Shown: piece by piece, positions 4,279-25,173 of the stretch
Layout of the letters: each line of letters opens with the position of its first letter
How positions within the stretch are numbered: the first letter of the stretch is position 1
DNA from: Arhodomonas aquaeolei DSM 8974
Lineage (GTDB): Bacteria > Pseudomonadota > Gammaproteobacteria > Nitrococcales > Nitrococcaceae
Assembly (NCBI RefSeq): GCF_000374645.1
Contig: NZ_KB894826.1
Coordinates: forward strand, 1 to 37,670
Length of the DNA: 37,670 nt
Reading direction: 5' to 3'
The notes under the pieces: generated by a model
What the model was told of the DNA's origin: nothing
The model's database searches: none
The model's input: only the letters and a program-made list of their open reading frames with translations
Made by a program: the position numbers and the translations under genes

Positions 4279-4295
4279 ATGCGACATGGATCTCG

Positions 4296-4341
4296 TTTTT
4301 ACTATGTTGATCCCTGTTTTTGCACAGTTGCGCACGTTTTT
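4296..4341 (+). repeat. Three phased T5 tracts (probable curved DNA)
   Basis: TTTTT occurs at 4296-4300, 4317-4321 and 4337-4341, each preceded by G, with starts 21 and 20 bases apart. That is two helical turns, so the bends would add up. The tracts sit in the only clearly AT-rich island inside the EPS block, just ahead of a candidate promoter. Curved DNA of this kind is a common place for H-NS-like proteins or for promoter activation. Confidence 0.5.
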
Positions 4342-4354
4342 AATGGCTGATAAT
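4328..4354 (+). promoter_or_regulatory. Candidate internal promoter ahead of the OPX export gene
   Basis: GATAAT (4349-4354) is a good -10. The best -35 is TTGCGC (4328-4333) with a short 15-base spacer, so an activator may be needed. It lies in the 158-base gap, the longest inside the first part of the block, and would transcribe the export, chain-length and downstream genes separately from the initiating transferase. Confidence 0.35.
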
Positions 4355-4378
4355 TTGAAATCATTGGCGCCATTTCAA
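4355..4378 (+). promoter_or_regulatory. Operator-like inverted repeat directly downstream of the candidate -10
   Basis: TTGAAAT (4355-4361) and ATTTCAA (4372-4378) are perfect 7-base inverted arms around a 10-base spacer that itself contains GGCGCC. The site begins at the base after the candidate -10 and would cover the transcription start, a typical repressor position. As RNA it could fold into a 5' hairpin about 60 bases ahead of the start codon. Confidence 0.4.
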
Positions 4379-4436
4379 CTTTAGGGAATGGAGCCGGTCA
4401 ACGGGTCGCAGAGGCTGCCAGCAGGAGGGCACTGCC

Positions 4437-5075
4437 ATGCGTCGGATCCTTCCCCTAGTGATCGCTATCGCGGCGTCCACGTCGCTTCTCGGGTGCGCTT
4501 CGCGGCCACCGACGCCCCCCACCAGTCCCGAGCAGGGCGAAGGCGCCCCGATGTCCTATGCCCCGGGCGAGCGCTATCACATCGGTCCGGATGACGAGCT
4601 CTCCGTCAACGTCTGGCGCAACCCCGATCTCTCCGTGGTCGTGCCCGTGCGTCCGGACGGGATGATATCGGTGCCCCTGGTCGGCGATGTTGCCGCCGGC
4701 GGGCACACCCCGGAGGAGGTCGCGAAGAGCATCCGCGAGGCCCTCGCCTACTACGTCCGCGAGCCGCAGGTGACGGTTGTGGTGACCGAGCTCAACAGCC
4801 ACGAGTACCTCTCACGGGTACGTGTCACCGGTGCCGTCGAAGAGCCTGCCTCGGTGCCCTGGCGCCAGGGAATGACGGTGCTCGATCTCGTCCTCGAGGC
4901 TGGGGGCATGACCGAGTTCGCCGCCCCCGGCCGGGCCATGCTCTACCGGCGCACCGGTGATCGTACCGAGGCCTTCGCCGTGCACCTCGACGACATCCTG
5001 GAGCGCGGCGATCTCACCACCAATGTCGCGCTCCAGCCCGGGGATGTGATCACCATTCCCGAGCGGGTCTTCTAA
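4437..5075 (+). CDS. Polysaccharide export lipoprotein, OPX (Wza-like) family
   Basis: A 212-residue outer-membrane polysaccharide export protein. The signal peptide ends in the lipobox LLGC with Cys20, so it is lipid-anchored. The poly-export domain follows (YHIGPDDELSVNVWRNPDLS onward, about residues 40-115), then one SLBB domain (about 120-195, from RVRVTGAVEEPASVPW through LQPGDVITIPE). It is shorter than E. coli Wza and lacks Wza's C-terminal amphipathic helix, the usual form of exosortase-A-linked export proteins (TIGR03027-like). A strong AGGAGGG lies 7 bases before the ATG. It works with the chain-length protein 37 bases downstream to form the trans-envelope export channel. Confidence 0.93.
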   Translation: MRRILPLVIAIAASTSLLGCASRPPTPPTSPEQGEGAPMSYAPGERYHIGPDDELSVNVWRNPDLSVVVPVRPDGMISVPLVGDVAAGGHTPEEVAKSIREALAYYVREPQVTVVVTELNSHEYLSRVRVTGAVEEPASVPWRQGMTVLDLVLEAGGMTEFAAPGRAMLYRRTGDRTEAFAVHLDDILERGDLTTNVALQPGDVITIPERVF

Positions 5076-5112
5076 CGGCTATCGCAGCCAGTCGCGCCGA
5101 GGGCGAACGACC

Positions 5113-6636
5113 ATGAACGGTCCCATCGACCAGATCCTCCGCCTGGTGCTCGCCGAGGGTGTGCGCCGCAAATGGGCGGTGCTCGCCGTCTTCCTCTCCC
5201 TGCTCGTGGTAGGCACGCTGGTCACGTTCGTGTGGCCGCGCTCCTTCACCTCGTCGGTGACTCTGTTTGTCGAGGAGCAGAGCATCATCGACCCCCTCAT
5301 GGAGGGGCGCGCGGTACGGCCCGATCTGACCTCCCAGGCACAGAACGCCCGAGAGGTGATATACGGCCGTACGCTGCTCACCCGCGTGCTCACCGATGCC
5401 GGCGAGGTGGGCGACGATACCCCGCCACTCGCCGTCGAGCAGGCGGCGGAGCGCCTGCGCGACCGTATCGAGGTCACGACGCCCGGCGAGAACCTGATTC
5501 GCATCGCCTACAGCGACCACGACGCCGAGCACGCCTTTCAGGTCACCAAGCTTATCGCCGAGGCCTTCCGCCAGGAGATGCTGGCGAACCAGCGCGCCGA
5601 GAGCAATGCGGCATTCCGGTTCATCGACGCCCAGGTCCGGCGTTACGAGGGGCAGCTGCGGACCACGCAGGAGCAGATCGACGCCCTGCGCAAGCGCTAC
5701 CCGGTGGTCGAGGTCAACGCCGCCGAGCAGGTCGGCGCGCGGATGGGTGAGCTTCGCCGCACCATCGACACCCTGGAACAGTCCCTGCGTGAGGCGATGG
5801 TGCGCGAGGCCTCGTTGCAGCGCCAGCTCAGCGGCGAGGTCCAGGTCTCCGCGGTTCTCTCCCGCGCGGACCAGTACCGTGCCCGCATCGCGGAGCTCGA
5901 GGGCCGGCTGGAGCAGCTGCGACTGAACTACCACGACACATACCCCGATATCGTCCAGCTCCGCGACCAGATCAGCGCCCTGCGAGCCAAGGCCCAGGAG
6001 GCCGCCGCCGAGTCGGAAGGGCAGCAGGGACCGAGCGTAAGCCTGCGTGGCAACCCGGTCTACCAAGAGCTGCAGCAGTCGCTCTACGAGGTGCGTACCG
6101 AGGCCGCCACTATCCGCGCCCGGCTTGCCGACGTGCGCCAACGCTACGCCGATGCCACTGGGCAGGCGGAAGAGGTCCAGGCCCTTCAGGGCCAGATGGA
6201 CCAGCTCACGCGGGATTACGCGGTGAACCAGGACATCTACCAGGATCTCCTCCGGCGCCGGGAGAACGCTCGTGTGTCGATGAACCTAGACAACCAGGGC
6301 GAGGGGCTGACCCTGCGCGTGCACGAGCCCGCCTTCCTGCCCCAGCGCCCGGATGGTCCGCGCACTCGGCACTTCACCGTGGCCACCGTGCTGGTCGGGG
6401 CGAGCGTTCCTGTCGGGCTGCTTCTGGTGTTGGTGGGCATGTCGCCGCGGGTTCACATGCCCGAACAGCTCCCGGAACTCTACCGCATGGCGGTGGTTGG
6501 ACGGCTGCCGCGCTATCGCACGGCGGCGGAACGGCGCCGCGGATTCCTCTCGCTTTCCATCGCGGGTTTGCTCGCCGTGCTCGGCGTAATCGCGCTCCTG
6601 GCGGTGATGCTGGTGCATGCCGAGGGAGGGTTGTGA
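5113..6636 (+). CDS. Polysaccharide chain-length determinant (PCP, Wzz-like), XrtA-system type
   Basis: A 507-residue inner-membrane polysaccharide co-polymerase that sets chain length and couples polymerisation to export. A membrane helix lies at about residues 21-40. A Wzz-type periplasmic part follows, then long coiled-coil stretches (about 170-240 and 300-390, rich in Glu, Gln, Leu and Arg), a second helix at about 421-443 and a third hydrophobic helix at about 480-502. The kinase-like protein is not fused but encoded one base downstream, so the PCP plus separate ATPase arrangement applies. Size and layout fit TIGR03007. The third C-terminal helix is worth noting because most Wzz proteins end after the second. 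Confidence 0.92.
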   Translation: MNGPIDQILRLVLAEGVRRKWAVLAVFLSLLVVGTLVTFVWPRSFTSSVTLFVEEQSIIDPLMEGRAVRPDLTSQAQNAREVIYGRTLLTRVLTDAGEVGDDTPPLAVEQAAERLRDRIEVTTPGENLIRIAYSDHDAEHAFQVTKLIAEAFRQEMLANQRAESNAAFRFIDAQVRRYEGQLRTTQEQIDALRKRYPVVEVNAAEQVGARMGELRRTIDTLEQSLREAMVREASLQRQLSGEVQVSAVLSRADQYRARIAELEGRLEQLRLNYHDTYPDIVQLRDQISALRAKAQEAAAESEGQQGPSVSLRGNPVYQELQQSLYEVRTEAATIRARLADVRQRYADATGQAEEVQALQGQMDQLTRDYAVNQDIYQDLLRRRENARVSMNLDNQGEGLTLRVHEPAFLPQRPDGPRTRHFTVATVLVGASVPVGLLLVLVGMSPRVHMPEQLPELYRMAVVGRLPRYRTAAERRRGFLSLSIAGLLAVLGVIALLAVMLVHAEGGL

Positions 6637-6637
6637 C

Positions 6638-7438
6638 ATGTCTGTCATTGAGAAGGCCATACAGCGCGGCGCCGGGGAGGAGGGATCGAGCAGTGCCCCG
6701 ATTCGTGCCAACGGTGATGCCCGGGCGCTCGACATCGCGCGCATGCGTATGCCGCCCGCCTGGCCGTCAACGGCCCTGGAGGCCCGGAGGCTCGTCTACC
6801 CCGGCATGAAGGACGTGCGCATGCTCAACGCCTTCCGGCTGCTGCGCACAAGACTGTTCTCGGTAGCTGGGGGCGGCCGACTAACCGTCGCGGTTACCGG
6901 GGTTTCCCGGGGCGGAGGGGCGAGCTTCTCCGCACGTAACCTTGCCGCCGCACTCGCCATGGACGCGATTCAGACCGTGCTACTGGTGGACGCCAACCTG
7001 CGCCGCCCTGGGCTCGACGACTTGCTCGCGGAACCCGGCGACGGTCCCGTCACCGGACTCACGGACTACCTCGCGGGCCGTGTCGATGACCCGGCAGCAA
7101 TCATTCACGCCACCGGTGTGCCGCGCCTGCGCCTGATCCCCGCGGGCACACTGCGGACGGACGCCGTGGAGTCCATGTCCATGACCCGGCTGCGCGAGCT
7201 GTTCAACCATCTGCGCGCGCGTTACCCGGACCGCAACCTGGTCCTCGACCTGCCGCCGATCCTCGACGAGGCGGATGCCCGGATCCTGGCTGGCCTGGCG
7301 GACACGGTGGTGCTCGCCGTGCGTTACGGGCGCGACGCGGCGCACCGCGTGGAGGTGGCGGCGGACGTCATTCCCTCGGAGCGGTTCGGAGGGATCGTAT
7401 TCAACGACGAGCCGGTTGCACCGGCGGCATGGGGGTGA
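6638..7438 (+). CDS. BY-kinase homologue with degenerate Walker A (XrtA-associated type)
   Basis: A 266-residue cytoplasmic partner of the preceding PCP. I start it at ATG 6638 because GGGAGGG lies 7 bases ahead and MSVIEKA matches the conserved beginning of TIGR03018-type kinases. The ATG at 6617 lies upstream of that ribosome site. Walker A' is clear (VLLVDANLRRPGL, about 114-126) and a Walker B-like LVLDLPP follows. The Walker A region, however, reads TGVSRGGGASFSARN (87-101): aligned with the usual PGEGKST, the essential Lys is Ala95. No C-terminal tyrosine cluster is present; the protein ends NDEPVAPAAWG. It is therefore likely a pseudokinase or weak ATP binder that regulates the PCP rather than a normal autokinase. 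Confidence 0.85.
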   Translation: MSVIEKAIQRGAGEEGSSSAPIRANGDARALDIARMRMPPAWPSTALEARRLVYPGMKDVRMLNAFRLLRTRLFSVAGGGRLTVAVTGVSRGGGASFSARNLAAALAMDAIQTVLLVDANLRRPGLDDLLAEPGDGPVTGLTDYLAGRVDDPAAIIHATGVPRLRLIPAGTLRTDAVESMSMTRLRELFNHLRARYPDRNLVLDLPPILDEADARILAGLADTVVLAVRYGRDAAHRVEVAADVIPSERFGGIVFNDEPVAPAAWG

Positions 7439-7444
7439 GGCGAT

Positions 7445-8755
7445 ATGCGTGCATGGGGGAAAGGGCGCTGGCCGTGTGCCAGCGCGTTGTGGCTGCTGTC
7501 CGGCGTGTGGGGGCTATGTGCCGTCGCGGCGGCGGCCCCGCGGGGTGATTACAACGTCTTCCTGGAGCAGACCTATACCGATAACGCCCCGCTCGAGGCG
7601 GACGCGCAGCCCGACTGGATCACGGTCCTCGGCGTGGAAGGCGTGCTCAGCGAGCATGGTGGTCGCCTCGACGCGGACCTGCGGGCCCGCGTCGCTCGCG
7701 AGGAGTACCACCGCGATACCGTCGAGGACGACACGGCACTGAGCCTGCTCGTGGACACCCGCTACTGGTTGCGTCCGCGCACGTTTTCCTGGGCATTCTA
7801 CGACCGCTTCGCCCGGGTCGGCGAAACCGTCGAGGACGCCGACCGGCCGGGCGCCCAGCAGAACGCCAACGTCGTGTGGACCGGCCCCGACGCCGCCGTC
7901 CACCTCGGGCCCGTCGATGACTGGCTCCTCGGCGCCCGAGTGGGCCATACCTATTTCGAGTCCGATGCCGACAGCGTGCGTTACGCGGCGAATACCGGCT
8001 GGCGGCATCGCACCAATGAGAACTCGGAGCTCAGCCTGATCGGCCGTGCCCAGCAGGTCGACTTCAAGGAGGAGGCCGCCGCGGCGATCGACTACGACCG
8101 CTACGACCTCTTCGCCGGCCATCAGCGCACCGGAGGTTCGCCGCTGCAATGGCGCGCCCAGCTCGGCATGAGCCGGGTAGAGCTCGACGGCCGCGACAGC
8201 GATGACGCCCTGCTGCTCGACTCCGAGATCACGTACCGGCGCTCGGCGCCGACCCTCGTCGGCGCGCGCATCGCCCACCAGTACACGGACGCCACCGGAC
8301 GACTGCTCGACACCTCCGGCATCCTCCGCGGCCTGGAGCCGGTCACCGACCTGTCGGTCGGCACCTCGCTGATCTACGAGCGCCGCTACGAGCTGTTTTT
8401 GCGCCGCGAGGCCCCGATCTGGACTGCGGAGGCCCGGGGCTACTACGTCGACGAGGACTTCAAGACCGAGGACAGCGACCGCGACATCTCCGGCCTGCGC
8501 TTCTACGGCAGCCGGTCACTGAGCGCCCGCACGGACCTCGGCGGCGAGGTCTACGGCGAGCGGATCCACTATCAGCTCTTCGAGCGCGAGGACAAGGACT
8601 ACGGCGCGAGCCTGAGCCTGACCTGGCGGCTTAGCAGGGAACTGCGCCTGCGCGGGGCGGTAGGCCACATCGTGCGTAACAGCGACGTGGATGCGGCGGA
8701 ATACGAGGAGAACCGGGTGTTTCTCGCCCTGGTCTACGGAGGGAGTCTCGACTGA
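7445..8755 (+). CDS. Outer-membrane beta-barrel protein of the EPS system
   Basis: A 436-residue secreted protein. Residues 1-31 form a signal peptide (hydrophobic core ALWLLSGVWGLCAVAAAA), followed by FLEQTYTDN, which resembles the ExTYTDN start of the TIGR03016 family linked to exosortase A. The remainder alternates polar and aromatic residues in beta-strand style with many Arg/Asp/Glu turns (WRHRTNENSELSLIGRAQQV, LRLRGAVGHIVRNSDV) and ends VFLALVYGGSLD, consistent with a barrel. Its likely job is at the outer membrane with the OPX protein, but the exact role in this family is unknown. GGGGGTGAGG precedes the ATG, and the last base of the stop overlaps the next ATG. Confidence 0.8.
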   Translation: MRAWGKGRWPCASALWLLSGVWGLCAVAAAAPRGDYNVFLEQTYTDNAPLEADAQPDWITVLGVEGVLSEHGGRLDADLRARVAREEYHRDTVEDDTALSLLVDTRYWLRPRTFSWAFYDRFARVGETVEDADRPGAQQNANVVWTGPDAAVHLGPVDDWLLGARVGHTYFESDADSVRYAANTGWRHRTNENSELSLIGRAQQVDFKEEAAAAIDYDRYDLFAGHQRTGGSPLQWRAQLGMSRVELDGRDSDDALLLDSEITYRRSAPTLVGARIAHQYTDATGRLLDTSGILRGLEPVTDLSVGTSLIYERRYELFLRREAPIWTAEARGYYVDEDFKTEDSDRDISGLRFYGSRSLSARTDLGGEVYGERIHYQLFEREDKDYGASLSLTWRLSRELRLRGAVGHIVRNSDVDAAEYEENRVFLALVYGGSLD

Positions 8756-9672
8756 TGACCAACCCGATTGCGCCTGGCCGCTCGCGGCCACCGCCGCTCA
8801 ACGCCATGACCATCGACGTGGAGGACTACTTCCAGGTCGCCGCCCTGTCCGGTGCCATCGCCCCGAAGGACTGGGAGCGCTGGCCGCGGCGGGTCGAGGC
8901 GAACACCCGACGGTTGCTGGATCTCGTCGAGCGTCACGGCGTGCGCACCACCTGTTTCGTGCTGGGCTGGATCGCCGAGCGCCACCCGGTTCTCGTTCGC
9001 GAGATCGCTGACCGCGGCCACGAGATCGCATGTCACGGCTACAGCCACCAGCTCGTCTACGACCAGACGCCGGAGCGTTTCCGCGAGGAGACCCATCGCG
9101 CCCGGGTGCTGCTGGAGGATCAGGTCCAGCGTCCGGTCGTCGGCTATCGCGCGGCGAGCTATTCCATCACCCCGGCCTCCCGCTGGGCCCTCGACGTGCT
9201 CGTCGAGGAGGGCTTCCGTTACGACTCGAGCATCTTCCCGATCCGCCACGACCGCTATGGCATGCCCGGCGCCCCGCGCTATCCCCACCGGCTGACCACG
9301 CCGGCGGGCGGCGAGATCGTCGAGTTCCCCCTGACCACCTGGCGGGTACTCGGCCAAAGCGTGCCGGTGGCCGGCGGCGGCTATTTCCGGCTCCTGCCGT
9401 ACCCGCTGATCGCCCGCGGGCTGCGTGCCGCCGCGGCGGGGGGGCAGCCGACCGTTTTCTATCTTCACCCCTGGGAGGTTGATCCGGAGCAGCCCCGGGT
9501 CCCGGGGCTCTCGTGGCGCTCGCGGCTGCGCCATTACCGCAACCTGCATCGTACCGGCGAGCGTCTGGAGCGGCTGCTGGGCGAGATGAGCTTCGCGCCC
9601 ATGGGCGAGGTCCTGGCCACGATGGGCCTGCTCACCGAGGCGGGAGGTGCCCCGTGCCGGGCGTCGGCGTGA
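8755..9672 (+). CDS. Polysaccharide deacetylase, XrtA-system (DUF3473) type
   Basis: A 305-residue NodB-fold deacetylase that would remove N-acetyl (or O-acetyl) groups from the polymer or its precursor. The family motif MTIDVEDYFQ (about 18-27) carries the catalytic Asp pair and HEIACHGYSHQ gives the metal-binding His residues. YRAASYSI and a C-terminal DUF3473 tail (TVFYLHPWEVDPEQPR...) are typical of TIGR03006. No signal peptide is seen, so it probably acts in the cytoplasm or at the membrane on lipid-linked precursors. The ATG overlaps the previous stop (TGATG). The next gene begins 18 bases before this one ends. Confidence 0.92.
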   Translation: MTNPIAPGRSRPPPLNAMTIDVEDYFQVAALSGAIAPKDWERWPRRVEANTRRLLDLVERHGVRTTCFVLGWIAERHPVLVREIADRGHEIACHGYSHQLVYDQTPERFREETHRARVLLEDQVQRPVVGYRAASYSITPASRWALDVLVEEGFRYDSSIFPIRHDRYGMPGAPRYPHRLTTPAGGEIVEFPLTTWRVLGQSVPVAGGGYFRLLPYPLIARGLRAAAAGGQPTVFYLHPWEVDPEQPRVPGLSWRSRLRHYRNLHRTGERLERLLGEMSFAPMGEVLATMGLLTEAGGAPCRASA

Positions 9673-10742
9673 GCGCGGGTACCGCGCCGGCCTTGGTGCC
9701 AGTGCGGGTCATGATGTCCGGCCCCGGGGAGCGCTGGGACAGCACCGGCTGGGATGACTACGTCCGGGGCCACCCGGCGGCGAGCCTTTATCACGAGGCG
9801 GTCTTCCGTGGTCTGCTCACCGACGTGCTTGGCCATCGCACCTACTACCTCACGGCGCTCACGGACCAGGGGACCGTGGCGGGCGTGTTGCCGCTGGCCC
9901 GGCTGCGCAGCCCGATGTTCGGTGACTTCCTCGTGTCGCTGCCTTGCTTCAACTACGGCGGTGCGCTGGCCGATGGCGGAGCGGTCACCGACCGTCTGAT
10001 GGCCGCGGCGGTGGACCTGGGTGGCCAGCTCGGCGTGGACCACGCCGAGTTCCGCGATCTCGCCCTGCTCGACGGTGACTGGCCCGTGCGCACGGACAAG
10101 GTCGTCATGCACCTGGCGTTGCCGGACGACCCGGACACGCTCTGGAAGACGTTCGGATCGAAGCTCCGGGCCCAGGTGCGGCGCCCGCTCAAGGGCGGGG
10201 CCAGCGTGCACAGCGGGGGCGTCGAACAGCTGGACGACTTTTACGCGGTATTCGCGCGCAACATGCGCGATCTCGGCACGCCGGTCTACCCGCGGCGCTG
10301 GTTCCGACGCCTTTGTGAGGGTCTCGGGGAACGTGCCCACATCCTCGTGGTGCGCGTCGACGGCGTGCCTGCCGCAGCGGGCCTGCTGCTGCGCCACCGC
10401 GGGGTCATGGAGATCCCCTGGGCCTCCTCGGACCGGCGTTACAACCACCTCGGCGTGAACATGCTCCTCTACTGGGAGGCGTTGCGCCTGTCCGTGGAGC
10501 AGGGGGCGCGGACCTTCGACTTCGGCCGTTCCACCGTGGATTCTGGGACGTACCGTTTCAAACGCCAGTGGGGTGCCGAGCCGGTACCGCTGTACTGGCA
10601 TTACTGGCTGCCCGAGGGCGGGACGCTGCCGGGCCTCAACCCGGACAACCCGCGGTTTCGGCGGGCCATCCGCCTGTGGCAGCGGCTGCCGTTACCCATG
10701 GCCAACTGGCTGGGGCCGCGCGTCGTGCGGTATCTGCCGTGA
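9654..10742 (+). CDS. FemAB-like aminoacyl/acyl transferase, XrtA-system type
   Basis: A 362-residue protein with two tandem GNAT-like lobes of the FemAB family. Relatives transfer amino acids from aminoacyl-tRNA onto peptidoglycan, and TIGR03019 members occur with exosortase A loci. Recognisable stretches are HPAASLYHEAVFRGLL, FGSKLRAQVRRPLKGGA and YWEALRLSVEQGARTFDFG, then FKRQWGAEPVPLYWHYWLP near the C-terminus. I choose GTG 9654 because GGGAGG stands 6 bases ahead; GTG 9669 (overlapping the stop of the deacetylase) and ATG 9711 are alternatives. In context it would modify amino groups freed by the deacetylase just upstream, which is inference. The real donor (aminoacyl-tRNA or acyl-CoA) is not visible. 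Confidence 0.85.
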   Translation: MPGVGVSAGTAPALVPVRVMMSGPGERWDSTGWDDYVRGHPAASLYHEAVFRGLLTDVLGHRTYYLTALTDQGTVAGVLPLARLRSPMFGDFLVSLPCFNYGGALADGGAVTDRLMAAAVDLGGQLGVDHAEFRDLALLDGDWPVRTDKVVMHLALPDDPDTLWKTFGSKLRAQVRRPLKGGASVHSGGVEQLDDFYAVFARNMRDLGTPVYPRRWFRRLCEGLGERAHILVVRVDGVPAAAGLLLRHRGVMEIPWASSDRRYNHLGVNMLLYWEALRLSVEQGARTFDFGRSTVDSGTYRFKRQWGAEPVPLYWHYWLPEGGTLPGLNPDNPRFRRAIRLWQRLPLPMANWLGPRVVRYLP

Positions 10743-10758: not shown

Positions 10759-12750
10759 ATGTGCGGACTCTGCGGCATTCTCCGACTCACTGCCTCGGCA
10801 CCCCCGGTCGAGGCCGAGGTGCTCGCGGGCATGATCGCCCGGATCGGCCACCGCGGCCCGGACGAGCAGCGCCTGCGCATCGAACCGGAGATCGGGCTCG
10901 GCCACGCCCGGCTATCGATCATCGACCTCGCCACCGGCAGCCAGCCCATCCACAACGAGGATCGGCGTATCTGGGTGGTGTTTAACGGCGAGGTCTTCAA
11001 CTACCCGGAGCTGCGCCGCGCCCTCCAGGCGCAGGGCCACCGCTTTTACACCGATACCGATACCGAGGTGCTGGTCCACCTTTACGAGGAGTACGGCGAC
11101 GACTTCGTCGAGCACCTCAACGGCCAGTTCGCCATCGCGCTGTGGGATGGCCGGCACCGCAGGCTGGTGCTCGTGCGCGACCGCGTGGGCATCGCGCCGC
11201 TGTACTACGCCGAACGGGACGGGCGGTTGCTGTTCGCCTCCGAGGTCAAGGCCCTTTTGCCGGCCCTCGGTGAGGCCCCGCGCATGGATCCTGCCGGCCT
11301 GGACCAGCTGTTGACCTTCTGGGCGCCGGTGGCGCCGCGGACCCTGTTCGCCGGCATCAGCGAGCTGCCGCCCGGTGAGATGCTTATCGCCGAAGGCGGC
11401 CGTTGCCGGCGCCGGCGCTACTGGCAATGGCAGTACCCGGAACACCCGGACGGCTACCTGCGGGATACACCCGAGAGCCTTGCCGAGAGCCTTCACGACC
11501 TGCTTGCCGACGCGGTGCGCGTGCGCCTGCGTGCCGATGTGCCGGTCGGGGCGTACCTCTCCGGCGGCCTGGACTCGGCGGTGATCACCGCGCTCATCCA
11601 CCGCCGTGCGGACGTGCCCCTGCGCACCTTCTCCCTGCGTTTCACCGACCCGGGCCTCGACGAGTCCGCCTTCCAGAGGGCGATGGTCGAGCACCTGCGG
11701 GCCGCCCACACGGCGGTGCCGGTCACCGATGAGCTCGTCGCCAACGGGCTGCCGGCGGCGGTCTGGCACGCGGAGATGCCGATGCTGCGCGCCGCGCCGG
11801 TGCCCATGGCGGCGCTGTCGGCGGCGGTGCGCGGGGCCGGCTACCGCGTGGTGCTCACCGGCGAGGGTGCCGACGAGGTGCTCGGCGGCTACGACCTCTT
11901 CAAGGAGGCCAAGATCCGCGCCTTCTGGGCGCGACAGCCCGACTCGCGGCTGCGTCCGCGCCTGCTCCGCCGGCTCTATCCCTATCTGGACATGACCCGG
12001 GGGCAGGGGCAGGTATACCTGGAGCGGTTCTTCGGCATGGGGCTGGACGATCCCTCGGGCGCGTTCTTCTCCCACCTCCCGCGCTGGACCACCACGGCGC
12101 GGACCAAGCAGTTCCTGAGCCCGGCCTACGCTGGCGCGGCTGTCGACGGGGCCCTGGCCGGGCTTGCGGAGGCACTGCCGGCGGGGATGCGGCGCTGGCA
12201 GGGCCTGGAGCGCGCCCAGTACCTGGAGGCGCGGACCCTCATGGCCGGCTACCTGCTCTCCGCCCAGGGGGACCGCATGCTCATGGCCAACGGCGTGGAG
12301 GGGCGGTTCCCGTATCTCGACCATCGCGTCATCGAGTTCGCCAACCGCCTGGAGCCTCGGCTGAAGCTGCGGGTGCTGCGCGAGAAACACCTGCTGCGGG
12401 AGGCCATGGCCGGCTACCTGCCGGCCGCGCTCACGCACCGCCACAAGCAGCCCTATCGGGCCCCGGACGCTGCCGCGTTCTTTCGCGGTACCACGCCGGC
12501 GTTCGTTGACGAGCTGCTCGCCCCCGGGAAGCTGGCGGATTACGGCTACTTCGACCCGTCGCGGGTCTCGCGGCTGCTGGCCAAGGCCCGGCGCGGCGGC
12601 ATCACCGGTTTCGCGGACAACATGGCCTTCATGGCCGTGCTCTCCACCCAGCTCTGGCACCGGCAGTTCGTCGAGGATTACCACCGGCAATTCGTCCGCC
12701 TCCGGCCCGAGGGCCTGCGGCAGGCGGTCACAATCGAAGCGGAGGCTTGA
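10759..12750 (+). CDS. AsnB-type glutamine amidotransferase, exosortase A-associated type
   Basis: A 663-residue class II amidotransferase. The start at 10759 puts the nucleophile Cys at position 2 (MCGLCGIL), with GGGAGGGG ahead. The glutaminase half has HRGPDE (31-36) and FNGEVFNY (75-82). The synthetase half has SGGLDS (268-273), the ATP pyrophosphate loop, and TGEGADEVLGGY (367-378). It would activate a carboxylate with ATP and add ammonia from glutamine. It resembles TIGR03108, found with exosortase A, where amidation of a sugar acid is suspected rather than asparagine synthesis. It heads a tight run with a carrier protein (1 base later), an AMP ligase and a NadE-like gene. A second AsnB lies at 25174. 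Confidence 0.93.
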   Translation: MCGLCGILRLTASAPPVEAEVLAGMIARIGHRGPDEQRLRIEPEIGLGHARLSIIDLATGSQPIHNEDRRIWVVFNGEVFNYPELRRALQAQGHRFYTDTDTEVLVHLYEEYGDDFVEHLNGQFAIALWDGRHRRLVLVRDRVGIAPLYYAERDGRLLFASEVKALLPALGEAPRMDPAGLDQLLTFWAPVAPRTLFAGISELPPGEMLIAEGGRCRRRRYWQWQYPEHPDGYLRDTPESLAESLHDLLADAVRVRLRADVPVGAYLSGGLDSAVITALIHRRADVPLRTFSLRFTDPGLDESAFQRAMVEHLRAAHTAVPVTDELVANGLPAAVWHAEMPMLRAAPVPMAALSAAVRGAGYRVVLTGEGADEVLGGYDLFKEAKIRAFWARQPDSRLRPRLLRRLYPYLDMTRGQGQVYLERFFGMGLDDPSGAFFSHLPRWTTTARTKQFLSPAYAGAAVDGALAGLAEALPAGMRRWQGLERAQYLEARTLMAGYLLSAQGDRMLMANGVEGRFPYLDHRVIEFANRLEPRLKLRVLREKHLLREAMAGYLPAALTHRHKQPYRAPDAAAFFRGTTPAFVDELLAPGKLADYGYFDPSRVSRLLAKARRGGITGFADNMAFMAVLSTQLWHRQFVEDYHRQFVRLRPEGLRQAVTIEAEA

Positions 12751-12751
12751 T

Positions 12752-13003
12752 ATGACCCATCGGCAGCAGCTGCGCGACTACATCCTGGAGAACTACCTGT
12801 TCACCAGCGATGCCTCGGCGTTGGACGACGACGCCTCCTTCCTCGAGCGGGGGATCATCGACTCCACGGGGATCATGGAGGTGATCGATTTCCTTGAGGA
12901 ACGCTTCGGCGTTCAGGTGCGCGACGAGGAGATGATCCCGGAGAACCTCGACTCGGTGAACCGGATCTGCCGCTTCCTCGAGCGCAAGCGGGCCGCGGCA
13001 TGA
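12752..13003 (+). CDS. Acyl carrier protein
   Basis: An 83-residue acidic four-helix carrier protein. The phosphopantetheine site is in GIIDSTGIMEVIDFLEERFG with Ser38 (the usual DSL reads DST here). The N-terminal helix is QQLRDYILENYLF. The start at 12752 is one base after the preceding stop, and the ATG of the AMP ligase overlaps its end by four bases, so the three are translationally linked. It would carry an acyl or aminoacyl thioester loaded by the downstream ligase, as DltC does for DltA. It is too specialised in context to be the fatty-acid ACP. Confidence 0.93.
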   Translation: MTHRQQLRDYILENYLFTSDASALDDDASFLERGIIDSTGIMEVIDFLEERFGVQVRDEEMIPENLDSVNRICRFLERKRAAA

Positions 13004-14562
13004 TGGCCGGCCCCGTCCTGCCGCTCGCGTGGTTCACGGCGAGCGCGCAGTCCGCCCCGGGGGCGGCCGCGCTGGAGTGCGACGGCCGTGTCACCACCTA
13101 CGGGGAGCTCCTCGCGGGCGCGGCTGGGGTGGCGGCGTGGCTGCGCGAGCGGGACATTGCACCGGGCGACCGGGTAGGCCTGCTCCTCGACGATGCCCCC
13201 GCCTACGTAGCGGCGTACTACGGGACCCTCGCCGCCGGCGGCGTGGTCGTGGCGTTGAATACCGCGGCCCACGCCGACAGCCTCATCGCGTGGCTCGGCC
13301 ATGCCGGTGCCCGCTTCCTGATCGCCGGCCCCCACCCGGACCTCGGGGCGGTGCTCGACGGCCACGCCCCGGAACACCTGCTCTTCACCGGCCGCGACGG
13401 GGTCCCGGCGGTCGCGGAGCGCTGGGACGGTGCGGTGGAGGCGGATGCCGAGTGGCGGCCGGCGCCGGCCACGGAGCGAACACTGGCCAGCCTGATCTAC
13501 ACCTCCGGGACCACCGGTACGCCCAAGGGGGTGATGATCAGCCACGGCAACCTGGCCGCCAACGTCGCCGCCATCGTCGATTACCTCCGCCTCGGTCCGC
13601 AGGACCGGACCGCGAGTCCGCTGCCGTTCCACTACTCGTATGGCAATTCGGTGCTGCACACCCACATGGCCGCCGGCGCCTGTCTCGTGCGTCTCGGCTC
13701 CATGGCCTACCCGCAGCGGGTCCTGGAGGCCCTGGCGGGATCGGCTATCACCGGTTTCTCGGGGGTGGCGGCCACCTATGCGCTGCTGCTCGGGCGGCAT
13801 CGCCCCGACGGCATCGTGCTGCCCCGGCTGCGCTACCTCACCCATGCCGGCGGCCCGATGCCGGCGCCGCTGCTGCAGCGGCTGCGCGAGACCTTCCCCC
13901 GGGCGGAGGTCTTCGTGATGTACGGCCAGACCGAGGCCACGGCCCGCATCGCCTACCTCCCGCCGGAGCGCCTGGACGAGCGCGCTGGCTCCGTGGGCCG
14001 GCCGTTGCCCGGCGTGCGGGTGTCCGTGCGTGACCCGGAAGGTCGGGCATGCCCAACCGGCACGCGCGGCGAGGTGTGGGTCAGCGGACCCAACGTCATG
14101 CAGGGCTACTGGCGGGCCCCGGAGCTCACCGCCGGCGTGCTCCGGGACGGCTGGCTGCACACCGGTGACCTGGGCTGGCTCGATGACGACGGCTTTCTCT
14201 ACCTGGCCGGACGGATCGGCGACGAGATCAAGACCGGTGCCCACCGGGTCAGTCCGGAAGAGATCGAGGAGGTCCTCGCCGGCTGTCCGGGTGTGGTGGA
14301 GGCAGGGGTCGTGGGCGTGCCCGACGATCTCCTCGGCCAGGTCATCCGTGCCGTGGTCGTGTCTGGCAGTGGCCCCAACGTCTCGCCGCGGGCGGTGCTC
14401 GCCCACTGCCGTGAGCGGCTGCCGCCCTACAAGATTCCCAGGGAGGTGATCTGCGCGGCGGCGCTGCCGCGCACCGCCTCCGGCAAGCTCCAGCGTTTCC
14501 GCCTCGCAGCGGAGCCCCTACCGGTCCAGCAGCCCACAGCCCTTGCGGAGGGTGAGACATGA
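13000..14562 (+). CDS. Acyl-AMP ligase (ANL superfamily), exosortase A-associated type
   Basis: A 520-residue adenylate-forming enzyme. It activates a carboxylic acid with ATP and presumably loads it onto the carrier protein just upstream. Core motifs are all present: LIYTSGTTGTPKGVMISHGN (A3, about 166-185), YGQTEATAR (A5), HTGDLGWLDDDGFLYLAGR (A7/A8 region) and the C-terminal PRTASGKLQR with the catalytic Lys. It fits TIGR03098, seen with XrtA loci, where a PLP decarboxylase (TIGR03099) is a usual neighbour. That decarboxylase is absent here, and the next gene is instead a NadE-like enzyme overlapping by four bases. The substrate acid is unknown. Confidence 0.92.
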   Translation: MMAGPVLPLAWFTASAQSAPGAAALECDGRVTTYGELLAGAAGVAAWLRERDIAPGDRVGLLLDDAPAYVAAYYGTLAAGGVVVALNTAAHADSLIAWLGHAGARFLIAGPHPDLGAVLDGHAPEHLLFTGRDGVPAVAERWDGAVEADAEWRPAPATERTLASLIYTSGTTGTPKGVMISHGNLAANVAAIVDYLRLGPQDRTASPLPFHYSYGNSVLHTHMAAGACLVRLGSMAYPQRVLEALAGSAITGFSGVAATYALLLGRHRPDGIVLPRLRYLTHAGGPMPAPLLQRLRETFPRAEVFVMYGQTEATARIAYLPPERLDERAGSVGRPLPGVRVSVRDPEGRACPTGTRGEVWVSGPNVMQGYWRAPELTAGVLRDGWLHTGDLGWLDDDGFLYLAGRIGDEIKTGAHRVSPEEIEEVLAGCPGVVEAGVVGVPDDLLGQVIRAVVVSGSGPNVSPRAVLAHCRERLPPYKIPREVICAAALPRTASGKLQRFRLAAEPLPVQQPTALAEGET

Positions 14563-15572
14563 GCGTGACCCAACCCATTGCGCCCGCCGGCGGCGGGCTC
14601 CATCCCTGGCTGGCCCTGGACTGCGAGGCGGAGGCGGAGCGTATTGCCGCCGGCCTGCGTCGCCTGCTCGCCGAGCGTATCGGCCGTCGCGGCCTGGTCG
14701 TGGCGGTCTCCGGCGGCATCGACAGCGCCCTCTGTGCGGCCCTTGCGGTGCGTGCCGTGGGGCCGCGGCGGGTGTTCGCCCTGATGCTGCCGGAACGGGA
14801 CTCCGACCCGGAGACCCGGGTCCGGGCGCGGACACTGGTCGAGCAGCTCGGCGTGGGCCACCAGCAGGAGGACATCGCCCCCATGCTGGAGGCGGTGGGC
14901 TGCTATCGCTGGCGGGACGAGGCCATGCGAGCCGTCTTCCCTGACTACGACGCGGACTGGGCGAGCAAGATCGTCATCCGCGGTGGTCTGGAGGGGCGCT
15001 ACAACCACTTCGAGCTGGTGGTCCGCGCGCCCGGGGGGCGCCAGAGGCGCCGGCGGCTGGGTTACCAGGCCTACCTGCAAATCGTCGCCGCCACCAACTT
15101 CAAGCAGCGCGTGCGCAAGACCCTGGAGTACTTCCACGCGGACCGCCTGAACTACGCGGTGGTCGGTACACCGAACCGGCTCGAGTATGACCAGGGCTTC
15201 TTCGTGAAGGTCGGCGACGGGGCCGCGGACGTCAAGCCCATCGCCCACCTGTACAAGTCCCAGGTCTACGCGCTGGCACGCCATCTGGGGGTGCCGGAGT
15301 CCATCTGTACCGCGGCACCGACTACCGACACCTACAGCCTCCCCCAGGGCCAGGACGAGTTCTATTTCGCCCTGCCTTACGACCGTATGGACCTCGCGCT
15401 GTACGCGCACAACCAGCACATGCCCGCGGAGACCCTGGCAGAGGCGCTGGGTATGGCTGTCACCGAGGCCGAGCACATCTACCGCGACATCGACGTCAAA
15501 CGCCGCACGACCCGCTACCTCCACGAGTCGGGGCTGACCGTCGTGCCCGTACCGGAGGTCCCGCTGCCGTGA
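14559..15572 (+). CDS. NadE-like ATP-pyrophosphatase (NAD synthase family), EPS-linked
   Basis: A 337-residue N-type ATP pyrophosphatase resembling ammonia-dependent NAD synthase. The P-loop AVSGGIDSALCAALA (49-63) is intact, and VKVGDGAADVKPIAHLYKSQ matches the NadE block that binds magnesium and the acid substrate. Departures: the usual GTxNKSE is GTPNRLE, and there is an extra region of about 60 residues (about 125-185, containing DWASKIVIRGG and Arg-rich RQRRRRLGYQ). There is no nitrilase-type glutaminase domain, so ammonia must be free or supplied by a partner such as the AsnB upstream. Start and stop codons overlap both neighbours (ATGA, GTGA). A housekeeping NAD role is possible, but the position argues for adenylating and amidating a polymer-related acid, which is inference. 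Confidence 0.85.
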   Translation: MSVTQPIAPAGGGLHPWLALDCEAEAERIAAGLRRLLAERIGRRGLVVAVSGGIDSALCAALAVRAVGPRRVFALMLPERDSDPETRVRARTLVEQLGVGHQQEDIAPMLEAVGCYRWRDEAMRAVFPDYDADWASKIVIRGGLEGRYNHFELVVRAPGGRQRRRRLGYQAYLQIVAATNFKQRVRKTLEYFHADRLNYAVVGTPNRLEYDQGFFVKVGDGAADVKPIAHLYKSQVYALARHLGVPESICTAAPTTDTYSLPQGQDEFYFALPYDRMDLALYAHNQHMPAETLAEALGMAVTEAEHIYRDIDVKRRTTRYLHESGLTVVPVPEVPLP

Positions 15573-16744
15573 TCGGTAACGCCGCGGTGCGCGTGGTGCA
15601 CGTGGCCTCCGGCGACCTCTGGGCCGGCGCGGAGGTCCAGGTGTATGGCCTGATCACCGCGCAGCGGCGCGCCGGCATGGACGCCCGGGCGGTGCTGTTC
15701 AACGACGGCACGCTGTACCGGCGCCTGCACGCGGACGGCGTGCCGGTGACCCTGCTCGACGAGAGCCGGCTGGGCGCGCCACGGCTGCTGGCGGCGCTGT
15801 GGCGCGGCCTGCGCCGGGCGCGGCCGTCGGTGGTGCACACCCACCGGCGCAAGGAGCATGTGCTCGGCGCCCTGGCGGCGCGGGCCGCCGGCGTGCCGGT
15901 GTGCCTGCGTACCGTGCACGGGGCCGACGAGGCGCCGCCACCCGCGGTCTGGCAGCTCCACCGGCGTCTGGCCGCCAGGCTGGATGCCTGGTGCGAGCGC
16001 CGCCTGCAGAAGGTGACGGTGGCGGTATCCGGCGAGCTTGCCGAACGCCTCGCCGAACGGTCCGGGACGCGTCCGCCGCGGGTGGTGGAGAACGGTATCG
16101 ACGCCGCGGCCGTGCGCGCGGCGGCGGCCGCGCCGGTGGCCCTGCCCGGGCCGGCGGACGCCTTCCGGGTGGCGCTGGTCGGGCGGCTCGTGCCGGTCAA
16201 GGCGCCGGAGCGCTTCGTCGCCGCGGTTGCGGCGCTGCCGGTCGCGGCAGCGGGGCAGCCGGTGCACGGCTACGTCATCGGGGACGGCCCGCTGACGGCG
16301 GCGGTGACGGACGTGGCGGCACGCGCGGGCGTGGCGGATCGGCTGCACGTCATGGGCTTCCGGGATGACGTCCCGGCCTGCCTGCGGCGGATGGACGCGC
16401 TCATGGTCACCTCCGAGCACGAGGGGATGCCGACCAACGTACTGGAGGCGCTCGTCCTGGGGGTACCCGTGATCGCCCACGCCGTCGGCGGTCTGCCCGC
16501 CGCGCTGGGCGAGGGGCGCTACGGCGTGCTCGTCCGCGACCCGGACCCCGCCGCCTTCGCCGCGGCGCTATCGACCCTCGCCGCGGAGGGCGGAGCCGCG
16601 CGCCGACGGGCGGTAGCGGCGAGCGGCCGGGCCGCGGTGCGTTACGATTTTGCCCGGGTCGCGGCGGGGTATGCTCGGATCTATTCGGAGCTGCTGCGCG
16701 AGGCGCAGCCGGCCAGCGCGGCCACGGAGGTCCGCGAACCATGA
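15569..16744 (+). CDS. Glycosyltransferase family 4
   Basis: A 391-residue GT-B retaining glycosyltransferase that would add one sugar to the lipid-linked repeat at the cytoplasmic face. The acceptor-side domain begins VRVVHVASGDLWAGAEVQV with the Gly-rich GGAE-like loop. The donor domain contains VALVGRLVPVKAPERFV and the E-x7-E signature in SEHEGMPTNVLEALVLGVPV. I use GTG 15569, which overlaps the NadE-like stop by four bases. No nearby ATG fits as well. Donor and acceptor sugars cannot be read from the sequence. It overlaps the ATP-grasp gene by four bases. Confidence 0.92.
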   Translation: MIGNAAVRVVHVASGDLWAGAEVQVYGLITAQRRAGMDARAVLFNDGTLYRRLHADGVPVTLLDESRLGAPRLLAALWRGLRRARPSVVHTHRRKEHVLGALAARAAGVPVCLRTVHGADEAPPPAVWQLHRRLAARLDAWCERRLQKVTVAVSGELAERLAERSGTRPPRVVENGIDAAAVRAAAAAPVALPGPADAFRVALVGRLVPVKAPERFVAAVAALPVAAAGQPVHGYVIGDGPLTAAVTDVAARAGVADRLHVMGFRDDVPACLRRMDALMVTSEHEGMPTNVLEALVLGVPVIAHAVGGLPAALGEGRYGVLVRDPDPAAFAAALSTLAAEGGAARRRAVAASGRAAVRYDFARVAAGYARIYSELLREAQPASAATEVREP

Positions 16745-21592: not shown

Positions 21593-22354
21593 ATGAGCGA
21601 GTTGATATTCCCAGCGGGGTCGTCTTCTACGGAGGGACGCCAGCCATCCCGCCTGGCCCAACTGCGCGGCTATTGGACCGCCGGTGGGGCGGACTTGGTG
21701 CAGGAGGTGCTCTGCGTCAACGGTTACCTGCCACCGCGGCTGTATGACCTCGCCGAGATGCACGTGCTGCGCCTTACGGAGCTGAACGAACGCCCCATGC
21801 GGCGTGTGAGCGCGGCCTATGAGGGTGGCGAGGTGCGGGAGGCGGAGCTGCCGGTGGTCGCAGCGCTGGAGGACCCGGCCGGGGCGGTGGAGCGCGAGGC
21901 GGCCTACCGCGCCTACCTCGCGGCGGGGCAGCGCTGTCTGGTCGTGCGTCATAACGACGTGGTGGTGGCCTACGGTTGGGTCTTCCACGAGCGGTTCGAG
22001 GCGGGACGCGGCCCTGGGCGGGCGGCGGTCCACCTGCGCCTGCGTCCGGGTGACATGATGCTGGGCCACGGCTACGTGGTCCCCGGCCACCGGTTGCGAG
22101 GGGCCTTTCTCAGCCTCGCCGCCACCGCCGTGGCGAATGTGCCACGTGGCGGTGCCTGCTATGCGGTGGTGGACCGGCTGAACGTGCACTCGCGGCGCTC
22201 CCACGAGCGGCTTGGTTTCGTCCCGGTGGCCCGGCTGCGTGCACGACGTTGGCCCCTCGGCCGGTACCGCTGGCGGGGCGGACCGTGGTCCGGGGCGATG
22301 CACGCCATCGGCCAGGGGACACCCGAGGTAGGCCTGGACGCGTTGCTCGGGTGA
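21593..22354 (+). CDS. GNAT-like acetyltransferase of unknown substrate
   Basis: A 253-residue cytoplasmic protein. The second half looks like a GNAT fold: LVVRHNDVVVAYGWVFHE, then GHGYVVPGHRLRGAFLSLAA (an acetyl-CoA loop resembling R-G-x-G) and CYAVVDRLNVHSRRSHERLGFVPVARL, the typical N...S...LGF ending. The first 60 residues include NGYLPPRLYDLAEMHVLRL and match nothing I know. GGAGG lies 7 bases ahead of the ATG. It is preceded by another acyltransferase and followed by a deacetylase, so N-acyl exchange on an amino sugar is a sensible guess. Family assignment is moderately sure; the substrate is not known. Confidence 0.7.
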   Translation: MSELIFPAGSSSTEGRQPSRLAQLRGYWTAGGADLVQEVLCVNGYLPPRLYDLAEMHVLRLTELNERPMRRVSAAYEGGEVREAELPVVAALEDPAGAVEREAAYRAYLAAGQRCLVVRHNDVVVAYGWVFHERFEAGRGPGRAAVHLRLRPGDMMLGHGYVVPGHRLRGAFLSLAATAVANVPRGGACYAVVDRLNVHSRRSHERLGFVPVARLRARRWPLGRYRWRGGPWSGAMHAIGQGTPEVGLDALLG

Positions 22355-25046: not shown

Positions 25047-25173
25047 ATATCCCGCCCGTCCGTCGCCTCTTTTCGCCGAATTCATCACGTCCGTCATGTG
25101 ACGCTATCCAGCCCGTGCCCGCGGTGGTAAACGGAACGTGGGGCAAGCCGCTCTTCAACCCGGGTTACCGCCG

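What the first reader, a model, noticed from the sequence alone, without database searches (positions are those of the whole stretch)
10759..15572. AsnB - carrier protein - AMP ligase - NadE-like cassette: candidate new amidation or aminoacylation pathway
Four genes are joined by 1-base gaps or 4-base overlaps: an AsnB-type amidotransferase, a carrier protein with a DST phosphopantetheine site, an adenylating ligase with all core motifs, and a NAD-synthase-like ATP pyrophosphatase. Three of the four activate carboxylates with ATP. The exosortase-A-linked set I know pairs the ligase with a PLP decarboxylase, which is missing here, while NadE is present instead. A reading that fits: the ligase loads an acid on the carrier, the AsnB supplies ammonia, and the NadE-like enzyme amidates a second acid or uses the AsnB ammonia, giving an amidated polymer. 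The four-gene combination itself is what I have not met.
Basis: partly seen in the sequence, partly recalled or inferred. Interest (0 to 1): 0.75.

Follow-up and report, generated by a model that had tools for sequence, protein, structure and literature searches.

The report
Carrier-protein amidation cassette with NadE paralogue
Four neighbouring genes (an amidotransferase, a carrier protein, an acid-activating ligase and a NAD-synthase look-alike) form a gene set that recurs in several bacterial phyla and probably builds an amide-bearing acyl unit, but its product is unknown and the same four genes also occur in a rhizobium where two of them have been studied.

Summary
AsnB (10759-12750), carrier (12752-13003), AMP-ligase (13000-14562) and NadE-like protein (14559-15572) are real and tightly coupled. 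They are a recurrent module: in samples drawn without regard to context, 39 of 51 NadE-like loci (three phyla) have all three partners within 6 kb, against 0 of 18 canonical NadE loci of carrier genomes. The cassette is not confined to this genome, and the genome has a separate 560-aa NAD synthase, although the NadE-like catalytic residues are normal. The protein belongs to NCBI subfamily NF002048 and carries a conserved insert of about 50 residues. Corrections: it is not the exosortase-A set (AsnB and ligase far below TIGR03108/TIGR03098, no exosortase found in the genome), and the combination is not unmet: the same genes lie on Sinorhizobium meliloti pSymB, almost certainly SMb20652-SMb20649, where the ligase acylates the carrier. 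New here: the ligase slot has switched between two types at least 11 times, while AsnB, carrier and NadE-like sequences covary better. Best reading: carrier-based acid activation with one or two ATP-dependent amidations, often beside surface-polysaccharide genes. The substrate is undetermined.

The parts
10759..12750 (+). AsnB-type glutamine-dependent amidotransferase (663 aa); N-terminal Cys glutaminase plus PP-loop synthetase SGGLDS
   Evidence: TIGR01536 479 bits over cut-off 267, TIGR03108 402 below cut-off 817; C2-G3, SGGLDS, R344, TGEG-DE and KQPYRAP kept in at least 90% of 78 cassette AsnBs, Met1 in 60-90%
12752..13003 (+). dedicated carrier protein (83 aa), phosphopantetheine site GIIDSTG
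   Evidence: PF00550 25.4 bits over cut-off 20.8; best solved match is a peptidyl carrier protein, 2my5, E 1.7e-10; PltL, PigG, a D-alanyl carrier and ordinary acyl carriers follow
13000..14562 (+). AMP-forming acyl ligase (520 aa), type A of two ligase types found in this slot
   Evidence: PF00501 270 bits; TIGR03098 344 below cut-off 592; type split
14559..15572 (+). NadE-like ATP pyrophosphatase (337 aa), no glutaminase domain, subfamily NF002048/PRK00876
   Evidence: 479 bits over cut-off 313; AlphaFold model pLDDT 88; Z 27.6 to NAD synthetase 2e18
14904..15062 (+). subfamily insert of the NadE-like protein (about residues 116-168), modelled mainly as a helix and three strands just before the helix that carries N180 and R184
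   Evidence: 66 residues between aligned blocks against 14 in 2e18; conserved in 101 relatives; several of its columns empty in 18 canonical NadE; model
9708..10742 (+). FemAB/GNAT-type gene directly upstream (start chosen by me), possible acceptor-side acyltransferase
   Evidence: TIGR03019 379 bits over cut-off 260; relatives in 7 of 85 loci, within 6.5 kb of NadE in 6
8755..9672 (+). polysaccharide deacetylase (XrtA type), context
   Evidence: TIGR03006 390 bits over cut-off 276
15569..16744 (+). GT4 glycosyltransferase overlapping the end of the NadE-like gene by 4 bases, context
   Evidence: PF13692 92 bits over cut-off 27

Best explanation
The four genes are a conserved, patchily distributed biosynthetic module that makes an amide-bearing acyl unit on a dedicated carrier protein. 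Step 1 (reported for the S. meliloti relatives, inferred here): the AMP-ligase activates a carboxylic acid and loads it on the carrier. Step 2 (inferred from family and intact motifs): AsnB uses glutamine to amidate a carboxylate of the building block. Step 3 (inferred): the NadE-like enzyme adenylates a carboxylate with ATP and makes an amide from ammonia, possibly on the carrier-bound acid, whose phosphopantetheine arm could enter the solvent-exposed deamido-NAD pocket at the dimer interface; the subfamily insert comes just before the helix that holds two of the pocket residues. Step 4 (inferred): variable neighbours (FemAB/GNAT or hexapeptide-type acyltransferases, GDSL-like proteins, a methyltransferase, or an AMP-binding/thioesterase protein) pass the unit on, often to a surface polysaccharide. 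The ligase is exchangeable, so the acid may vary while the amidation chemistry stays.
For: Linkage with control: 39 of 51 against 0 of 18. The carrier is the commonest partner (46 of 51; ligase 43, AsnB 42). Pairwise identities correlate AsnB-NadE 0.64, ACP-NadE 0.43, Lig-NadE 0.26 over 100 complete loci. Two ligase types change at least 11 times on the NadE-like tree (200 shuffles: mean 32.6, minimum 26). Every carrier genome tested has another NAD synthase match: 18 of 19 at 192-216 bits in frames of 540-766 aa, the 19th (G094) at 67 bits; three further genomes at 165-240 bits. Ligase SMb20650 acylates carrier SMb20651 in E. coli and does not replace FadD (PMC7232532, abstract and passages). 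AsnB glutaminase and synthetase motifs are kept in at least 90% of 78 relatives, Met1 in 60-90%. Polysaccharide-gene relatives in 20 of 51 stretches, 0 of 19 controls.
Against: No step of the window's cassette has been assayed and no product is known. The S. meliloti ligase is type B, the window's type A, so the acylation result transfers only by analogy. The NadE-like enzyme keeps the P-loop, N180, R184, R186, N206, E209, D220, K233, K314 and R315 of canonical NadE, which would fit ordinary deamido-NAD amidation. By presence AsnB is no steadier than the ligase (42 and 43 of 51): ligase is absent but AsnB kept in L105, L107 and L147, and AsnB absent but ligase kept in L106 (contig end), L121, L134 and L140; L111 has only the carrier, and L114 (broken gene), L131, L132 and L146 have no partner. 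No fusion of any two of the four proteins was seen in 135 loci. Most members of one phylum sample and S. meliloti lack polysaccharide neighbours.
Confidence: 0.4

Rival explanations
1. The NadE-like protein is a true ammonia-dependent NAD synthase kept as a spare or as a local NAD source, and the other three genes make a fatty-acyl or asparagine-containing product on their own.
For: Over the NAD synthase cut-offs TIGR00552 (147 bits, cut-off 64) and NF002048; NadE fold, Z 27.6; catalytic and several deamido-NAD-site residues conserved (roles recalled); annotated records name it NAD(+) synthase.
Against: All 22 carrier genomes tested have another NAD synthase match. Canonical NadE loci are not next to these genes (0 of 18). 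A spare NAD synthase gives no obvious reason for a carrier protein beside it in 46 of 51 loci. Subfamily-wide insert with conserved positions.
Confidence: 0.25
2. AsnB and/or the NadE-like enzyme join the activated acid to an amine (amide or lactam ligation, as in beta-lactam synthetase or lasso cyclase) instead of to ammonia, giving N-acyl or cyclised products.
For: AsnB scores 217 bits with the lasso cyclase model NF033535 (below its cut-off 525) and 79 with beta-lactam synthetase 1jgt; GNAT/FemAB neighbours.
Against: The cassette AsnB keeps its N-terminal Cys and a full glutaminase domain, as ammonia donors do; it passes the asparagine synthase model TIGR01536.
Confidence: 0.15
3. The cassette is part of the exosortase-A/PEP-CTERM protein-sorting system.
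For: Upstream genes between 2881 and 10742 pass five XrtA-associated models (TIGR03013, 03027, 03007, 03006, 03019).
Against: No exosortase match in the genome (PF09721; rated 100% complete); AsnB and ligase far below TIGR03108/TIGR03098 cut-offs; module present without such neighbours in S. meliloti and in 14 of 15 of one phylum sample.
Confidence: 0.03

Closest known systems
Sinorhizobium meliloti pSymB genes, almost certainly SMb20652-SMb20649 (Ramos-Vega et al. 2009; its abstract recalled as naming asparagine synthetase, carrier, ligase and ammonium-dependent NAD synthetase; paper not held)
   Same: Same four families in the same order; NadE-like 56% identical; SMb20650 acylates SMb20651 in E. 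coli (PMC7232532)
   Different: Ligase of type B, not A; beside minCDE and sugar transport genes, no polysaccharide cluster within 9 kb; to my knowledge function unknown there too
NAD(+) synthase subfamily NF002048 / PRK00876
   Same: NadE-like protein is a member, 479 bits over cut-off 313
   Different: I know of no assay behind the name; members usually travel with a carrier protein and coexist with another NAD synthase
OxyD-type amidotransferase for the malonamate starter unit of oxytetracycline (PMC6164072, passages; AsnB-family assignment and carrier step recalled)
   Same: Amidotransferase presumed to supply an amide-bearing starter acid
   Different: No NadE-like enzyme that I know of, and a polyketide synthase follows; only an analogy
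Exosortase-A set with TIGR03108 amidotransferase and TIGR03098 ligase
   Same: Similar families, and XrtA-type EPS neighbours in this window
   Different: Both proteins below the curated cut-offs, no exosortase found
Francisella 'NMN synthetase' (3fiu)
   Same: NadE-fold protein whose entry is named for another substrate, Z 27.5 to the model
   Different: No such gene context known to me; shows only that NadE specificity can shift

Membership tests
NF002048/PRK00876 NAD(+) synthase subfamily | score over curated cut-off 313 bits | tested here: met
   479.4 bits, residues 18-329 of 337
NAD(+) synthetase (function) | NadE fold and PP-loop active site | tested here: met
   Z 27.6, 252 residues, rmsd 3.5 to 2e18; SGGxDS, N180, R184, E209, D220, K233 conserved
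NAD(+) synthetase (function) | the organism's only NAD synthase | tested here: not met
   separate 560-aa NadE at G000:C17, 250 bits on PF02540; 22 of 22 carrier genomes have another match, one of them weak (67 bits) and one at a contig end
NAD(+) synthetase (function) | amidates deamido-NAD | not testable with these tools
   needs an enzyme assay
Asparagine synthase TIGR01536 | score over cut-off 267 and intact glutaminase and synthetase motifs | tested here: met
   479 bits; motifs conserved
Exosortase-A associated amidotransferase TIGR03108 | score over cut-off 816.9 | tested here: not met
   402.5 bits
Exosortase-A associated ligase TIGR03098 | score over cut-off 592.35 | tested here: not met
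   344 bits
Exosortase-A system | exosortase gene in the genome | tested here: not met
   PF09721: no match at E <= 0.001 in 48 contigs
Exosortase-A system | PLP decarboxylase TIGR03099 beside the ligase | tested here: inconclusive
   no hit among the 20 window proteins scanned with NCBIfam (long lists cut at 25); not all window genes were scanned
S. meliloti SMb20652-SMb20649 operon | the same four families in the same order | tested here: met
   NadE-like 56% identical; the SMb gene numbers rest on recall plus PMC7232532
Ornithine-lipid carrier NF052616 | score over cut-off 130 | tested here: not met
   55 bits

The most novel reading that the evidence does not exclude
A bacterial pathway spread over at least three phyla in which a NAD-synthetase paralogue has been recruited to amidate a carrier-protein-bound carboxylate, giving amide-bearing acyl groups for surface polysaccharides and other products; probably hundreds of genes now called 'NAD(+) synthase' would be misnamed.
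Probability: 0.3. Interest if true: 0.75.

Novelty: new variant of a known kind. Interest (0 to 1): 0.55.

Why it matters
Its usual company, a dedicated carrier protein and an AsnB, suggests that it does something else. Knowing what would correct a broad annotation, assign a function to genes left open in S. meliloti, and possibly show how amide-bearing acyl groups are put on exopolysaccharides.

Tried and rejected
Exosortase-A link: rejected for this genome. Sole NAD synthase: rejected. A chance cluster: rejected. Fusions as direct evidence of contact: none in 135 loci. Amino-acid code of the AMP-binding/thioesterase protein of L115: read by eye, the usual Asp for an amino group is not at its place; not pursued. 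Literature: full-text searches for the families together found no paper; that library holds only open-licence papers, so absence proves little. Searches for NadE structure papers: (none); PMC3376133 searched for context terms, none found. PMC12794305 and PMC9386255 hold SMb20651 only in a reference list. A first ligase split into two clusters isolated only three rows and was replaced by three clusters. PF00550 does not detect the S. meliloti cassette carrier; the two other carrier-like genes it found on pSymB have no ligase in the fetched stretches, so the SMb20650/20651 pair is taken to be the cassette. The archaeal control was not followed.

Caveats on counts: the 80 loci are the best of 557 and favour near relatives. 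The 51 context-unselected loci (hits; fetched) overlap them in part (for example L100/L041, L104/L039, L142/L026, L141/L072, L146/L092). Left out of the 51: the window itself, G094 in its second appearance, and G769 and G770, whose loci were L021 (all three partners) and L032 (carrier and ligase; AsnB not seen, contig end). Eleven of the 51 and four of the 18 controls have under 6 kb on at least one side, and partners not seen there count as absent. The 135 loci contain duplicates. In one search each locus is typed by the ligase nearest NadE; the three rows set aside (L115, L120, L122) were typed on the AMP-binding/thioesterase-type protein. One search counts only relatives of this window's genes, and the control stretches are somewhat shorter, so other polysaccharide genes are missed.
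Full report
What is there. Searches confirm four coupled genes: AsnB 10759-12750, carrier 12752-13003, AMP-ligase 13000-14562 and NadE-like 14559-15572, all on the + strand, with a FemAB-type gene 16 bases upstream (ends 10742) and a GT4 glycosyltransferase overlapping downstream (15569). Family scans give Asn_synthase/TIGR01536, PP-binding, AMP-binding and NF002048 (PRK00876, 'NAD(+) synthase', 479 bits over a cut-off of 313). The cassette sits in an exopolysaccharide locus in which five upstream genes pass XrtA-associated models (TIGR03013, 03027, 03007, 03006, 03019). AsnB and ligase, however, fail TIGR03108 and TIGR03098 by a wide margin, and the genome, rated 100% complete, has no exosortase match.

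Not the only NAD synthase. The genome has a separate 560-aa NadE. All 19 carrier genomes tested have another TIGR00552 match: 18 at 192-216 bits in frames of 540-766 aa, one (G094) at 67 bits in an 826-aa frame, just over the cut-off. Three more genomes have a stronger PF02540 match elsewhere, one of them at a contig end.

Is the linkage real? I drew genomes without regard to context with NF002048: family 3 of 23 over the cut-off, class 16 of 369 plus one partial, phylum 15 of 398, the phylum of a locus titled Myxococcota 17 of 188, and the phylum of a locus titled Planctomycetes 7 of 246. Neighbourhoods of 51 hits (class 16, phylum 13, 15 and 7) were scored with one set of profiles. All three partners lie within 6 kb in 39 of 51 (11/16, 12/13, 11/15, 5/7); the carrier in 46, ligase in 43, AsnB in 42, none in 4 (L114, a broken gene; L131; L132; L146). 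As a control, the canonical NadE loci of carrier genomes gave 0 of 18 with any partner (the 19th was not located). Of the 51, 29 come from the window's own class and phylum, but both other phyla show the linkage. Among 101 loci that include the best 80 of 557 scan loci, 45 of the 53 with 6 kb on both sides have all three.

Architecture. Among 135 loci, 100 have all four; 65 of these show the window's order AsnB-ACP-Lig-NadE on one strand, 10 AsnB-Lig-ACP-NadE, 7 NadE-AsnB-Lig-ACP, 18 others. Rearranged order with kept company argues for joint function. Pairwise identities correlate best for AsnB-NadE (0.64), then ACP-NadE (0.43) and AsnB-ACP (0.39), and least for pairs with the ligase (0.14-0.26). 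The ligases fall into two types of 46 and 51 loci (47% identity within, 34% between; three rows set aside); the type changes at least 11 times on the NadE-like tree, 14 on the AsnB tree and 13 on the carrier tree, far fewer than shuffled labels (about 32.5) but many (FastTree). So the ligase slot is exchangeable. By presence, though, AsnB is missing as often as the ligase: ligase absent and AsnB kept in L105, L107 and L147; AsnB absent and ligase kept in L106 (contig end), L121, L134 and L140; only the carrier in L111.

The NadE-like protein. The AlphaFold model (33 sequences, pLDDT 88) matches NAD synthetases (2e18 Z 27.6; Francisella entry named NMN synthetase, 3fiu, Z 27.5; human NAD synthetase 6ofb Z 23.4). 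Residues kept in at least 90% of both families include the SGGxDS loop, N180, R184, R186, N206, E209, G213, G219, D220, K233, P254, K314 and R315 (76 relatives against 18 canonical, glutamine-dependent-length NadE). Many other positions differ from those 18, but several agree with the shorter enzyme 2e18. By recalled NadE structures several of the kept residues contact ATP, Mg or deamido-NAD. Against 2e18 the subfamily has about 50 extra residues (around 116-168) with strongly conserved positions (GCY, RD, W..K, N.F, P.G), modelled mainly as a helix and three strands before the helix with N180 and R184. [quoted passage not shown] This leaves open both ordinary deamido-NAD amidation and amidation of a carrier-bound acid; the gene context favours something other than plain NAD synthesis.

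Carrier, ligase, AsnB. The carrier's best solved matches are peptidyl carrier proteins (2my5, then PltL and PigG, with D-alanyl and ordinary acyl carriers below). The ligase's best are a fatty-acyl/feruloyl-CoA synthetase and malonyl- and succinylbenzoyl-CoA ligases, and at the place of the amino-acid-binding Asp it has His (by eye, motif recalled), so an amino acid is not the obvious substrate. AsnB keeps Cys2, the PP-loop, Arg344 aligned with E. coli Arg325 (E. coli number recalled), GEG-DE and the Lys of KQPY.

Known before. The same four genes lie on S. meliloti pSymB (strain 1021: 1450582-1455388; annotated as asnB, acyl carrier protein, acyl-CoA ligase, nadE in strain RCAM1115), next to minCDE. 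PMC7232532 (abstract and passages) states that ligase SMb20650 is cotranscribed with carrier SMb20651, acylates it in E. coli, and does not replace FadD. PMC10315480 (one passage) lists smb20650 among genes down-regulated under attack by Myxococcus. From memory, Ramos-Vega et al. 2009 list the operon as SMb20652 asparagine synthetase, SMb20651 carrier, SMb20650 ligase and SMb20649 ammonium-dependent NAD synthetase; the paper is not held. pSymB of strain GR4 has one NadE locus, and its two other PF00550 genes have no ligase in the stretches fetched, so the identification is strong though not read from a label.

Context and function. Relatives of this window's polysaccharide export, priming or deacetylase genes lie in 20 of 51 sampled stretches (9/16, 6/13, 1/15, 4/7; some matches weak) and 0 of 19 controls, whose stretches are somewhat shorter. 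The link is frequent, not general. Recurrent neighbours are GNAT proteins (17 loci), hexapeptide transferases, GDSL-like proteins (below Pfam's cut-off), a methyltransferase (12 loci; 9 of 9 typed ones with ligase type B, some of them close kin) and, in three loci of one unnamed genus, a protein of about 915 aa with AMP-binding profile matches just upstream of NadE; the one scanned (L115) has AMP-binding and thioesterase domains. These are mostly acyl-handling families, which fits an acyl unit built on the carrier and passed on. The amidation steps are inference from AsnB and NadE chemistry; OxyD, presumed to make the malonamate starter of oxytetracycline (PMC6164072, passages), is a precedent for an amidotransferase in such a setting.

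Verdict. A real, conserved module of patchy distribution with unknown product, two of whose proteins were studied in one rhizobium. Transfer between phyla is suggested (the window's nearest NadE-like row by path is titled Myxococcota), but no supported branch holds the window row. Mechanism as stated: about 0.4; a plain spare NAD synthase: about 0.25.

Noticed in passing
window 2881-10742: Five XrtA-type exopolysaccharide genes above model cut-offs in a genome without an exosortase match (PF09721), so the 'XrtA' label is not diagnostic here.
   Followed up: partly
window 25138-27228: A second AsnB-type protein, closer to TIGR03108 (500 bits, below cut-off 817) than the cassette AsnB.
   Followed up: no
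window 21593-22354: 253-aa protein without Pfam or NCBIfam match; a relative (116 bits) lies beside the NadE-like gene of L020. It recalls N-acyl amino acid synthases of PEP-CTERM loci (from memory).
   Followed up: no
L115:2359-5112, L120:9962-12754, L122:6669-9413: Proteins of about 915 aa with AMP-binding profile matches directly upstream of NadE-AsnB-Lig-ACP in three genomes of one unnamed genus; the one scanned (L115) has AMP-binding and thioesterase domains.
   Followed up: partly
L019, L029, L052, L060, L067, L069, L075, L087, L089: Methyltransferase gene (MTS family) in or beside the module, in all nine typed loci with ligase type B.
   Followed up: partly
control genome Methanosarcina acetivorans: The only one of 14 controls over the NF002048 cut-off and the only archaeal control that rings for the carrier family PF00550; an archaeal copy of the module is possible, linkage not checked.
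   Followed up: no
L020, L039, L053, L054, L081; window 33006-35643: One gene family near the module in five loci; the member scanned (L053) is a molybdopterin-binding hydroxylase type. A similar-looking pair lies about 18 kb downstream in the window (by eye).
   Followed up: no
L006:4143-5252, L007:4077-5189, L174:4167-5243: Hypothetical protein of about 360-370 aa directly upstream of asnB in Shinella, Nitratireductor and Roseateles plasmids; the first two have no Pfam match, the third was not scanned, and similarity among the three was not tested.
   Followed up: partly
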